A DNA stretch of 64,000 nucleotides from an uncultured Alphaproteobacteria bacterium (GTDB lineage: Bacteria; Pseudomonadota; Alphaproteobacteria; HIMB59; GCA-002718135). The stretch lies in NCBI GenBank assembly GCA_902621725.1, contig CACNND010000003.1, positions 62,001-126,000 of the forward strand. The letters are read 5' to 3'. Below the pieces are notes generated by a model. That model had not been told where the DNA came from. It searched no databases and saw only the letters and a program-made list of their open reading frames with translations. The first letter of the stretch is position 1, and each line of letters begins with the position of its first letter. A program made the position numbers and the translations under genes. Of this stretch, positions 14,558 through 20,490 are shown piece by piece.

Positions 14558-15679
14558 TTATACTACTAGTTTAAGACCGTAACCGGCTTTTTTTACTCTT
14601 GTTTTAAAATAATTTTTATTAAATTTATTTAAGGTTGGCTTTGTATTTATTTGATTTACAACTTTAATTCCAGCTTTCTTAATAGAATTTATTTTATTTT
14701 TATTATTTGTAATAAGATTAACTTTATTTATTTTTAATAATTTGAGTATTCTAGCTGCAATATTAAAATCTCTTTCATCATCTAAAAAACCAATATTATG
14801 ATCGGCGTCTATTGTATCCATACCCCTTGCTTGAAGAGAATAGGCTCTCATTTTATTAGCTAATCCTATTCCTCTACCTTCTTGTTCTAAATATAATATA
14901 ATTCCACCATTATTTCTAACCATGTAATTGATTGATTGATTTAACTGTTCACCGCAATCACATTTTAAAGAATGAAAAATATCACCTGTAAAACAAGCTG
15001 AATGTATTCTTAAATTAACAGATTTTTTATTTATTTTTTTTGGATTAACAATTATCGCTACATGTTTATCAGATCCAATATATGATTTGAATATTTTAAA
15101 ATTAGAATTTTCATTTTTTGGTAGTGGAACTTTTGCACTAGAAACTAATTTGATACTTTCACAAATTAATTCATTTTGCTTCAATAAATCTTTGTAATCA
15201 AATATTAAAATTCCATTTTTAAATCCAAATTCATTTATATTTTTGTAATTTTTTTTATTAATTTTTTTAAAAACTAGAGATGGTATCATTTTAGCATTTT
15301 TGGAAAGATCAATACAAACATTATGAAAATTTTTAGCTTTGAATTTTTTAATATTGGTAAATTTAATTACTTTATTATTGCTAAGAGGATTGACAAATAA
15401 ATTTATTATTTGATTTACATCTGTTTTGGGATTTATCTCAAAATAAATATTACTTTTAATATTCTTATTAAAAATTGATTGAGCTTTTTGTTTAGTAATA
15501 AGTAAGTATTTTTTATCAAATAAGTGCTTATTGAATTGATTAAAAATTTTACTTTGGGAATGCTCTATATTAAAGAACATCCAATATTCCTTGTTATTCT
15601 GAATTATTAAGGGTCTTCCGGTCCTGAGTTCGTTAATTGCCCTGTCTATTATAGTTCCTGTATTAGATTTGAAACTCAT
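14558..15679 (-). CDS. ribA: GTP cyclohydrolase II-like protein with a divergent N-terminal extension
   Basis: RIHSACFTGDIFHSLKCDCGEQL (Zn Cys), LEQEGRGIGLANKMRAYSLQ, DADHNIGFLDDERDFNIAARIL. Start at the internal Met (MSFKSNTG). Confidence 0.88.
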   Translation of the reverse strand: MSFKSNTGTIIDRAINELRTGRPLIIQNNKEYWMFFNIEHSQSKIFNQFNKHLFDKKYLLITKQKAQSIFNKNIKSNIYFEINPKTDVNQIINLFVNPLSNNKVIKFTNIKKFKAKNFHNVCIDLSKNAKMIPSLVFKKINKKNYKNINEFGFKNGILIFDYKDLLKQNELICESIKLVSSAKVPLPKNENSNFKIFKSYIGSDKHVAIIVNPKKINKKSVNLRIHSACFTGDIFHSLKCDCGEQLNQSINYMVRNNGGIILYLEQEGRGIGLANKMRAYSLQARGMDTIDADHNIGFLDDERDFNIAARILKLLKINKVNLITNNKNKINSIKKAGIKVVNQINTKPTLNKFNKNYFKTRVKKAGYGLKLVV

Positions 15680-15715
15680 TAAAACTTTATATAGATATAA
15701 TTGTAATAAAAACAA

Positions 15716-16549
15716 ATGATTACATCAAAAAATATAGGAATTTTACTAGATTTTATAAAAAATTCTAAAAAGAATAATGATTTATATTTATTGGTTAAAA
15801 AAAATAGTATTTCTTTATCATCAAAAAGAAAAAGTAATTTTTACATAAGAAATAATAATCTGGAATCTAAAATTAATATAAGTAAATATTATCAATCTAT
15901 CTTAAATATCCTTCTCCCGATATTAAGAAAAAACAAAAAATTAGTTATAGCTCAGATAGGACAAAGTATTGATGGTAGAATTGCATTAAATAATGGAAAT
16001 TCTCACTACATAAATAATCCTAAGAGTATAATTTATCTACATTGTTTAAGAAGTATCAGTGATGCAATTATTGTAGGCTCAAATACCATTAAAAAAGACG
16101 ACCCCCTATTAACAACAAGAAAAATAAAGGGCACAAATCCAAAAAGAATTATTATCGATGGCAGTCTTTCTCTAAATAACAAATATAAAATATTTAATGA
16201 CGGTAATGAAAATATAATTTTTACAAAAAGTAATAAAAATATTAGATTGAATAATTCAACAATAATAAGATTAAAAGAAAAAAATTTTACTAAAAATTTA
16301 ATTACGCAAATAAAAAAACTTAAATATAAAAATATTTTAGTAGAGGGAGGATCAAAAACTATTTCAGAATTAATAAATAATAAATATATTGATATTCTTC
16401 AATTTATGATTGCCCCAATATTAATAGGTTCCGGAATTAATTCATTAAATTTAAAAGTAATTTCAAATCTCAATAAAGCTATCAGACCAAAACATAATTT
16501 TAATGAATTAGAAAATGAAATTATTGTTAATTTATTTCTTAATAGCTAA
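15716..16549 (+). CDS. RibD C-terminal reductase-domain protein (no deaminase domain)
   Basis: IAQIGQSIDGRIALNNGNSHYINNPKSIIYLHCLRSISDAIIVGSNTIKKDDPLLTTR...NILVEGGSKTISELI, the RibD-C/DHFR-like fold. Confidence 0.87.
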   Translation: MITSKNIGILLDFIKNSKKNNDLYLLVKKNSISLSSKRKSNFYIRNNNLESKINISKYYQSILNILLPILRKNKKLVIAQIGQSIDGRIALNNGNSHYINNPKSIIYLHCLRSISDAIIVGSNTIKKDDPLLTTRKIKGTNPKRIIIDGSLSLNNKYKIFNDGNENIIFTKSNKNIRLNNSTIIRLKEKNFTKNLITQIKKLKYKNILVEGGSKTISELINNKYIDILQFMIAPILIGSGINSLNLKVISNLNKAIRPKHNFNELENEIIVNLFLNS

Positions 16550-18749: not shown

Positions 18750-19709
18750 TTAATATTTAATTAGATGCATTATTGTATCCTTATTTTGAAGAATTTTATA
18801 GTAATCTTTTTCTAAATCAAAAAAATTACTTTCACTAGTAATTAATTTTTCTAATTTTGAATTTTTTAAAGATTTAATTGCTAATTTTAATCTCCCATCA
18901 AAATCATATTTATTTTTCATGTATTTTGGTATTTTAGATACCTGTGAGCTGATTATTTTTAATCTTTTAGAATGAAAATACCCGCCTAGGGAAACTTCTC
19001 CTTTATTTTTACCATACCAACTAGCTTCTACTATTTTTCCTTCGATAGATAATTTTTCCATTAAAGAATTTAAAACTTTATAATTAGCTGTAGTGTTTAT
19101 TGCTACATCTATTTTCTCAATCTTTCTTATGTCAATAAAATTTAATCCTAAATAATTAGCAATTTTTCTTTTATTTTTATTATTATCAAAAACATAAACA
19201 TCTTTATATCCATTAATTTTAAAAAAAAATGCAGTTAATAATCCTACAGAGCCAAGTCCTACAATTAGAATTTTGTGATTACTTTTAGATTGAGCGTCCC
19301 AAAAGATATTAATTGCTGTTTCCATATTTGCAGTAAGAATATATTTTCTCAAATTTCCGGTTGGAAGAAAAATTAAATTTTGAATAGAAATTTCATATAA
19401 ATCTTGATGGGGATAAAGGCTAAATATTTTTTTATTTATATATTTACCTGGACCATCGATAATATTCCCAACATTTATATAACCGTATTTTATAGGTAAA
19501 TTAAAAGAACCCTCTTGAAATGGGGCTTTCATTAATTCAAATTGATCCTTACTTACGCTTTTAGATGAAACTAATTTTTCAGTTCCCTTACTAATACCTG
19601 AGTAAATAGTTTTAACTAAAACTGTTTTGTTATTTTTATTGTAAACAAGTTTTTTTTGATAAATTTTAGCTTGTTTTTTTTTATCAATCCATAAAGAATA
19701 AGATTTCAT
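18750..19709 (-). CDS. MDR-family (zinc-type alcohol dehydrogenase-like) oxidoreductase
   Basis: KTIYSGISKGTE, PIKYGYINVGNI, ILIVGLGSVGLLTAFFFKINGYKDVYVFDNNKNK (Rossmann). Confidence 0.8.
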   Translation of the reverse strand: MKSYSLWIDKKKQAKIYQKKLVYNKNNKTVLVKTIYSGISKGTEKLVSSKSVSKDQFELMKAPFQEGSFNLPIKYGYINVGNIIDGPGKYINKKIFSLYPHQDLYEISIQNLIFLPTGNLRKYILTANMETAINIFWDAQSKSNHKILIVGLGSVGLLTAFFFKINGYKDVYVFDNNKNKRKIANYLGLNFIDIRKIEKIDVAINTTANYKVLNSLMEKLSIEGKIVEASWYGKNKGEVSLGGYFHSKRLKIISSQVSKIPKYMKNKYDFDGRLKLAIKSLKNSKLEKLITSESNFFDLEKDYYKILQNKDTIMHLIKY

Positions 19710-19737
19710 AATTTACTTATAAATGTATAATAAAAAA

Positions 19738-20490
19738 ATGCTAACAAACTTTTGGGAAGAATTAACAACAAATGAAATTAAAAAAATAAATAGAAAAACA
19801 GTTTTAATTTTCCCATTTTCATCAATAGAACAACATGGTACGCACCTTCCATTAAATACTGATAAAAAAATTCTTGAAGGAATATTATTAGAATTCAATA
19901 AAAAATATAATTCAAATAAATATTTAATTATGCCTGAAATATATTTTGGTTCAGCTGCTGAACATACAGATTTTGATGGAACTATAAGTATTGATTCATT
20001 GGAATTTATATCGCACTCTTTATCAATTTTAGAAAATATATGTAAATTGAAATTTAAAAATATATTACTTTTAAATAGTCATGGTGGACAAATTAGTCAT
20101 ATAGATATTATTGCTAAAGAATTGAAATCAGAATTTAAGATAAACATAGTAAAAGGCACATATTTTTTATTTGATCAATTTAAAGGGATTATATCAAGTA
20201 AAGAAAAAGACTTTGGTTATCACGGTGGAGAATTTGAAACATCTATTATGTTATATTTATTTCCAAACTTAGTTAGACAATCTAAAATTTCCAAACATAG
20301 ATTATCTCCCGATTATTTATCATCTAAAACCATTTCTTATGAGAAAAATATTAAGAAAGCTTGGGTAACTAAAGAATTAAGTAAAAGTGGAATTATTGGA
20401 GATCCTAGAAAATCCAATGCAGAGATAGGAAAAAAAATAATTGATAGAGTAACACAAAAATTAAATAAAATAATAAATGAGATGTTTTAG
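19738..20490 (+). CDS. Creatininase-family amidohydrolase
   Basis: FPFSSIEQHGTHLPLNTDKKI, NSHGGQ, GYHGGEFETSIML; metal-ligand motifs intact. Confidence 0.88.
   Translation: MLTNFWEELTTNEIKKINRKTVLIFPFSSIEQHGTHLPLNTDKKILEGILLEFNKKYNSNKYLIMPEIYFGSAAEHTDFDGTISIDSLEFISHSLSILENICKLKFKNILLLNSHGGQISHIDIIAKELKSEFKINIVKGTYFLFDQFKGIISSKEKDFGYHGGEFETSIMLYLFPNLVRQSKISKHRLSPDYLSSKTISYEKNIKKAWVTKELSKSGIIGDPRKSNAEIGKKIIDRVTQKLNKIINEMF

What the first reader, a model, noticed from the sequence alone, without database searches (positions are those of the whole stretch)
14558..20490. Candidate undescribed pathway: RibA-like + RibD-C + methyltransferase + glycosyltransferase + altered PTPS + MDR dehydrogenase + creatininase
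Seven tightly packed genes include two riboflavin-type enzymes but no other riboflavin genes (no ribE, ribH or RibD deaminase). They sit with a PTPS-fold protein, a glycosyltransferase, a SAM methyltransferase, an MDR oxidoreductase and a creatininase-family amidohydrolase. Established chemistry: GTP cyclohydrolase II opens GTP to a diaminopyrimidine ribotide; RibD-C reduces the ribosyl to ribityl; the archaeal creatininase homologue ArfB deformylates a GTP-derived formamidopyrimidine; PTPS-family proteins act on pterins. Inference: the locus makes a glycosylated and/or methylated pterin- or ribityl-aminopyrimidine-like metabolite. I recall similar gene sets in other alphaproteobacteria, but no assigned product.
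Basis: partly seen in the sequence, partly recalled or inferred. Interest (0 to 1): 0.85.

Follow-up and report, generated by a model that had tools for sequence, protein, structure and literature searches.

The report
Conserved uncharacterised GTP-derived pterin-like pathway
Seven adjacent genes in a probable marine bacterium form the core of an enzyme pathway, found in the same order in many bacteria and in part in salt-loving archaea, that apparently turns GTP into a sugar-decorated pterin-like compound instead of vitamin B2; no product has been published that I could find.

Summary
Confirmed: seven intact, tightly packed genes with the stated domains. They are not riboflavin supply: the genome and genus carry separate ribD, ribE, ribBA, ribH and a second ribA. 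Fourteen relatives hold the complete block in one order within three flanking contexts; three more show it cut by a contig end. The wider cluster occurs in Proteobacteria, Acidobacteriota, Gemmatimonadota and Actinomycetota, and partly in Haloarcula. Over 88 PTPS-anchored loci, MDR is in 88, glycosyltransferase 86, methyltransferase 82. The PTPS carries the FGPAQ signature of PTPS-IV, whose PF00925/PF01872 neighbourhood was noted in 2017 (PMC5445326); no validated function was found. It keeps the pterin-binding Glu but has lost the catalytic Cys, a zinc His and the Asp/His dyad. RibA keeps the GCH II residues tested. RibD_C lacks a deaminase and the bacterial Lys152, like archaeal reductases that act before deamination. 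Best reading: a GCH II-initiated, undeaminated 2-amino-4-oxo-pyrimidine or pterin that is glycosylated and methylated. The product, and the proposed reductase/dehydrogenase route to a pterin ring, are inference.

The parts
14558..15679 (-). RibA paralogue: GTP cyclohydrolase II domain (residues about 181-344) plus an N-terminal region of about 175 aa that Pfam does not assign
   Evidence: PF00925 4.8e-49. Zn Cys54/65/67, Arg49, Glu92, Tyr105, Asp126, Arg128 (E. coli numbering) all kept. N-terminus unassigned.
15716..16549 (+). RibD C-terminal (reductase) domain protein without deaminase domain; E. coli Lys152 is Gln
   Evidence: PF01872 5.9e-31; Lys152 is Q/H/S in all 61 cluster members aligned there; archaeal reductases have Asn there; scores about 115-151 bits against RibD_C of distant proteobacterial clusters, 64-71 bits against its own genus's housekeeping RibD.
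16532..17320 (-). class I SAM-dependent methyltransferase of a family specific to this cluster; substrate unknown
   Evidence: weak Pfam hits; confident model, pLDDT 95.6, with no close fold match; present in 82/88 loci.
17322..18368 (-). GT4 glycosyltransferase (possible longer start at 18386)
   Evidence: PF00534 7.3e-19; 86/88 loci.
18349..18747 (-). PTPS-IV-type T-fold protein (signature FGPAQ), non-canonical active site
   Evidence: PF01242 9e-21; only solved relative 3d7j SCO6650; compared with E. coli QueD: Cys27 to Ala, His33 to Ala, Asp70-His71 to Asn-Tyr, Glu110 kept; FGPAQ in 84/88.
18750..19709 (-). MDR-superfamily dehydrogenase lacking the catalytic-zinc Cys motif, nearest to polyol/BchC-type MDRs
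   Evidence: in 88/88 loci.
19723..20490 (+). creatininase-family amidohydrolase with intact metal motifs (EQHGTHLPLNTD, NSHGG, GEFET); possible deformylase
   Evidence: PF02633 8.5e-55; ArfB model 28 bits, below its cut-off; 34/88 loci; motif tally.
20514..21077 (-). histidine-phosphatase-superfamily protein adjoining the block; possible dephosphorylation step (weak)
   Evidence: PF00300; adjoins the block on the other side in L112-L114 but is not found at the block in the second family.

Best explanation
The seven genes are the core of a widespread biosynthetic pathway, distinct from riboflavin synthesis, that starts from GTP. RibA (GCH II) opens GTP to 2,5-diamino-6-ribosylamino-4(3H)-pyrimidinone 5'-phosphate (shown only by family and residues). 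RibD_C reduces the ribosyl to ribityl without deamination (inferred from the missing deaminase and lost Lys152). MDR then oxidises the ribityl chain, and the PTPS-IV T-fold protein binds the 2-amino-4-oxo-pyrimidine head (pterin Glu kept, zinc chemistry lost). My preferred chemistry is that oxidation of the 2'-OH gives a ketone which closes on the 5-amino group. Reduction at C1' plus oxidation at C2' would be a two-enzyme equivalent of the Amadori step of GCH I and would yield a 7,8-dihydroneopterin-phosphate-type pterin. GT4 adds a sugar and the methyltransferase a methyl group. The creatininase would remove a formyl or other amide where needed. In many other bacteria a CDP-alcohol phosphotransferase and a flippase-like membrane protein join the set, suggesting a lipid-linked version there; the window's lineage lacks the former, and its own genome shows neither. 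The confidence given is for the general pathway; I put the specific ring-closure route at about 0.2.
For: Block conserved as an exact unit in three flanking contexts. Cluster conserved across phyla in a consensus order, with correlated pairwise distances between families. Two of three Haloarcula loci read show MDR, PTPS, MT and CDP-alcohol PT next to an annotated GTP cyclohydrolase IIa, i.e. the same GTP-opening step by an unrelated enzyme. GCH II residues intact. RibD_C family separate from housekeeping RibD, deaminase absent, Lys152 lost. PTPS keeps the pterin Glu in 88/88 but not the Cys, third zinc His or dyad. GCH I is undetected in all 164 genomes of the order and FolE2 in 41 genomes of the genus, so the usual PTPS/QueD substrate is probably not made. 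MDR's nearest folds include polyol dehydrogenases and TarJ. Precedent for pterin from the RibA product: in Chlamydia a promiscuous Trp enzyme shunts DARPP to 7,8-dihydroneopterin 3-phosphate (PMC9765610).
Against: No enzyme of this cluster has a known substrate from tools here. RibD_C is in only 62 and RibA in 38 of 88 loci, so housekeeping enzymes may supply the precursor or the route differs. Organisms with GCH I would have an easier source of dihydroneopterin, which argues against a plain pterin as the intermediate. The MDR resemblance to polyol dehydrogenases is generic to its superfamily.
Confidence: 0.55

Rival explanations
1. Same GTP-derived pathway, but no pterin ring forms: the product is a glycosylated and methylated ribityl-aminopyrimidine (or a condensation product with an outside carbonyl compound).
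For: Same genes; RibD_C would make the ribityl diaminopyrimidine directly; toxoflavin-type pathways use RibA and RibD for non-pterin products (own knowledge).
Against: A PTPS-fold protein with the pterin Glu kept in 88/88 loci points to a pterin-like ligand.
Confidence: 0.2
2. The block supplies dihydropterin for folate in organisms that lack GCH I.
For: No FolE in 164 genomes of the order, no FolE2 in 41 genomes of the genus, yet FolK (HPPK) is present in most of them; the predicted chemistry gives dihydroneopterin phosphate.
Against: PTPS-IV is found in only 2 of 9 genera of the order, and genus members without a detected block also have HPPK and no FolE (partly explained by incomplete genomes); a glycosyltransferase and methyltransferase are not needed for folate.
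Confidence: 0.1
3. PTPS-IV and its neighbours make coenzyme F420 or a variant, as suggested (unpublished) for archaea in PMC5041015.
For: A statement in PMC5041015; 5-amino-6-ribitylaminouracil is a precursor of Fo (own knowledge).
Against: No CofD/CofE motif found in the genome (crude motif scan, incomplete genome); no deaminase in the block; no F420 genes among the recurrent neighbours.
Confidence: 0.05
4. The genes simply serve riboflavin synthesis.
For: RibA and RibD_C families.
Against: Separate full-length RibD, RibE, RibBA, RibH and a second RibA in the genome or genus; the RibD_C here is a distinct family.
Confidence: 0.02

Closest known systems
PTPS-IV subfamily of COG0720 and its neighbourhood (Zallot 2016 PMC5041015; AGeNNT 2017 PMC5445326)
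   Same: Same FGPAQ signature; PF00925 and PF01872 reported as neighbours of a cluster of 561 sequences.
   Different: The passages read name only those two neighbours; MDR, GT4, methyltransferase, creatininase, CDP-alcohol PT and flippase-like genes, a mechanism and a product are not given; an F420 role is stated as unpublished.
Streptomyces coelicolor SCO6650 (PDB 3d7j) and SCO6655
   Same: SCO6650 is the only solved relative of the window's PTPS (7.9e-34). From memory, SCO6650 lacks zinc and PTPS activity, and SCO6655 is a GCH II homologue that releases a formylated product.
   Different: Streptomyces-type cluster RibA has Met at the Tyr105 position; the window has Tyr. The original papers could not be opened here.
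Chlamydial RibA-to-folate shunt
   Same: RibA product diverted to 7,8-dihydroneopterin phosphate (PMC9765610).
   Different: There one promiscuous Trp enzyme does the isomerisation; here a reductase/dehydrogenase pair is proposed, plus tailoring.
Toxoflavin/pseudoiodinine-type clusters
   Same: Secondary use of RibA/RibD-type enzymes plus a methyltransferase (own knowledge).
   Different: No PTPS, GT4, MDR or creatininase set known to me; not tested here.
Archaeal riboflavin branch (ArfA, ArfB, ArfC)
   Same: Reduction before deamination; creatininase-fold deformylase; GTP cyclohydrolase IIa annotated in two Haloarcula clusters.
   Different: The creatininase here scores below the ArfB cut-off (28 vs 180 bits).

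Membership tests
PTPS-IV (COG0720 subfamily) | FGPAQ sequence signature (PMC5445326) | tested here: met
   present in the window protein and in 84/88 cluster members
PTPS-IV (COG0720 subfamily) | neighbours PF00925 and PF01872 | tested here: met
   both in the window block; RibD_C in 62/88, RibA in 38/88 loci
PTPS-I / QueD | CxxxHGH motif and score above the TIGR03367 cut-off | tested here: not met
   motif 0/88; 37.3 vs 89.25 bits
PTPS-II and PTPS-III | CxxxxxHGH or ExxHGH | tested here: not met
   0/88 for both
GTP cyclohydrolase II (RibA) | three zinc Cys, catalytic Arg128 and Tyr105 (E. coli numbering) | tested here: met
   alignment with E. coli RibA; activity itself not tested
Bacterial bifunctional RibD | N-terminal deaminase domain and Lys152 | tested here: not met
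   only PF01872 found; Lys152 is Gln
Archaeal ArfB deformylase | score above the NF033501 cut-off | tested here: not met
   28.4 vs 180 bits
Creatininase superfamily (PF02633) | score above cut-off and metal-binding motifs | tested here: met
   186 bits vs 31.3; motifs
Zinc-dependent MDR alcohol dehydrogenases | catalytic zinc Cys motif | tested here: not met
   SGISRGTE-type sequence with Ser, no Cys, at the first ligand region
BchC | score above the TIGR01202 cut-off | tested here: not met
   50.5 vs 291 bits
Riboflavin biosynthesis locus | sole source of RibA/RibD in the genome, with RibE/RibH | tested here: not met
   separate genes at C5, C12 and C25; RibE on C12
F420 biosynthesis | CofC/D/E/G/H genes in the genome | tested here: inconclusive
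   no CofD/CofE motif in an 82% complete genome; CofC/G/H not tested

The most novel reading that the evidence does not exclude
A pterin pathway independent of GCH I: GCH II opens GTP, a RibD_C reductase and an MDR dehydrogenase together perform a two-step redox version of the Amadori rearrangement, a zinc-less PTPS-IV T-fold protein closes or holds the pterin, and the product is methylated and glycosylated, and in other lineages attached to a lipid by a CDP-alcohol phosphotransferase.
Probability: 0.2. Interest if true: 0.85.

Novelty: new variant of a known kind. Interest (0 to 1): 0.62.

Why it matters
The PTPS-IV marker is found in 18 of 240 high-quality Pseudomonadota genomes sampled, and PTPS-anchored loci also come from several other phyla and Haloarcula, yet no validated product was found in the papers searched. 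If the reading is right there is an unrecorded family of GTP-derived glycosylated pterin-like metabolites, possibly lipid-linked, and a second enzymatic way to build a pterin. Cultured carriers (Halomonas, Variovorax, Rhizobium, Streptomyces) make it directly testable by gene removal and mass spectrometry.

Tried and rejected
Riboflavin supply: rejected. QueD/PTPS-I to III membership: rejected by motifs and scores. Folate supply as the main role: the order lacks FolE throughout, with or without PTPS-IV, so there is no association. CDP-alcohol phosphotransferase as an obligate part: the cluster-type family was not found in the window's genus; only weak hits of 25-36 bits against 177-313 bits for members scored. 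FAPy deformylase role as a rule: non-Tyr RibA always co-occurs with creatininase (10/10), but Tyr-type RibA often does too (20 of 28). N-terminal region of RibA as degenerate RibB: no Pfam hit. Fold searches of MT and MDR gave only generic superfamily matches. Literature searches for the gene set or a pterin lipid found nothing further; the SCO6650/SCO6655 and Chlamydia originals were not held.

Full report
Observation. The methyltransferase and MDR match curated families only weakly; the others match well.

Not riboflavin. The same genome has RibH and a RibBA-like gene on contig C12 with riboflavin synthase beside them, a second stand-alone RibA on C5 and a deaminase-type RibD at the end of C25. 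Across the genus many genomes carry a full-length RibD of about 360 aa together with the short RibD_C of about 279 aa of this block. The block's RibD_C scores about 115-151 bits against cluster RibD_C of distant proteobacteria, but 64-71 bits against its own genus's housekeeping RibD.

Exact conserved unit. In the window's order, fourteen relatives were read with the complete block in one order and orientation: five genus members with the window's own flanks (two of them at about 93-99% protein identity), three genus members with different flanks, and six genomes of a second family with yet other flanks. Three further genus members show the same block cut by a contig end, so some absences are assembly gaps. 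The MDR was found in 73 of 112 family genomes at E up to 0.001, a few of these by weak matches only, and PTPS-IV in 94 of 164 order genomes, in 2 of 9 genera.

Wider cluster. With 7 plasmid loci and the window (88 loci), MDR is in 88, GT4 86, MT 82, CDP-alcohol phosphotransferase 69, RibD_C 62, a flippase-like LPG_synthase_TM protein 43, RibA 38, creatininase 34, a sulfatase-superfamily protein 25 and an FkbM methyltransferase 24. The usual order is CDPOH, MDR, PTPS, GT4, MT, LPG, RibD_C, RibA, creatininase, FkbM. PTPS was the anchor, so its own count is not evidence; some loci are cut by contig ends; and the loci are related to each other. Pairwise distances between families are correlated (0.51-0.94), which shared species history also produces. 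In Haloarcula two of three plasmid loci carry MDR, PTPS, MT and CDP-alcohol PT beside an annotated GTP cyclohydrolase IIa, and the third has creatininase, CDP-alcohol PT, MDR, GT4 and MT. In a sample of 301 Pseudomonadota genomes, 19 carry PTPS-IV.

Residues. The window RibA keeps Arg49, Cys54/65/67, Glu92, Tyr105, Asp126 and Arg128 of E. coli RibA. In ten actinomycete loci Tyr105 is Met (5) or His (5), and all ten have a creatininase; four actinomycete loci with Tyr have none (chance by simple counting 1/1001, ignoring relatedness). RibD_C has lost Lys152 in all 61 members aligned there (Gln, His or Ser), and the archaeal reductases 2azn and 6p8c have Asn there. The PTPS keeps His14, His28 and Glu119 in 88/88; against E. 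coli QueD the catalytic Cys, one zinc His and the Asp-His dyad are replaced. The sole solved relative is 3d7j, SCO6650. The MDR lacks the catalytic zinc Cys.

Mechanism. What is shown is family membership, residues and conserved neighbourhood. The reaction order, the oxidation site and the pterin ring are inferred. The atom count works: C1' and C2' of a ribitylamino group, with N5, C5, C6 and the linking N, make the six-membered ring of dihydropterin, so oxidation at C2' after reduction at C1' is formally the Amadori product. The RibA product is known to be diverted to dihydroneopterin phosphate in Chlamydia (PMC9765610). GCH I is undetected in 164 genomes of this order and FolE2 in 41 of the genus, although HPPK is present in most genus members searched. 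Hence the usual PTPS substrate is probably not made there; but since genera without PTPS-IV also lack FolE, the block does not explain their folate.

Known work. PMC5445326 assigns FGPAQ to PTPS-IV and reports PF00925 and PF01872 as its neighbours; PMC5041015 mentions an unpublished F420 role for PTPS-IV. The window protein fits PTPS-IV by signature and neighbours. No product for this gene set was found in the papers searched; that library lacks most subscription papers.

Verdict. A real and widely conserved pathway, partly noted before as a PTPS-IV neighbourhood, with no product that I could find. Interest 0.62.

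Noticed in passing
whole order of the window's genome (G000 and relatives): GCH I (FolE) is undetected in 164 genomes of the order and FolE2 in 41 genomes of the genus, while HPPK (FolK) is present in most genus members searched: an unexplained gap in folate synthesis.
   Followed up: partly
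window 20514-21077; L112-L114: A histidine-phosphatase gene adjoins the block on one side in the window and on the other side in three genus members, but is not found at the block in the second family.
   Followed up: partly
L004, L076, L080, L095, L097, L081, L090, L094, L096, L103: Actinomycete cluster RibA with Met or His at the Tyr105 position always co-occurs with creatininase; Tyr-type actinomycete loci (L083, L086, L092, L093) lack it.
   Followed up: partly
L006, L134: In two Haloarcula loci an annotated GTP cyclohydrolase IIa stands where bacteria have RibA.
   Followed up: no
L009 9079-10881; L032 16969-18978; L060 16285-17994: MdoH (annotated, Methylosinus), a large family-2 glycosyltransferase (L032) and MdoG (L060), i.e. 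periplasmic-glucan-type genes, lie next to the cluster in Methylosinus and Halomonas-type loci.
   Followed up: no
L003 15026-15565; L007 14528-15085: A cytochrome b561 gene sits in the cluster region of Rhizobium and Thiodictyon.
   Followed up: no
G000 C12:24377-25534: The RibBA-like protein has a degenerate GCH II domain that lacks the zinc Cys residues; a separate RibA is on C5.
   Followed up: no
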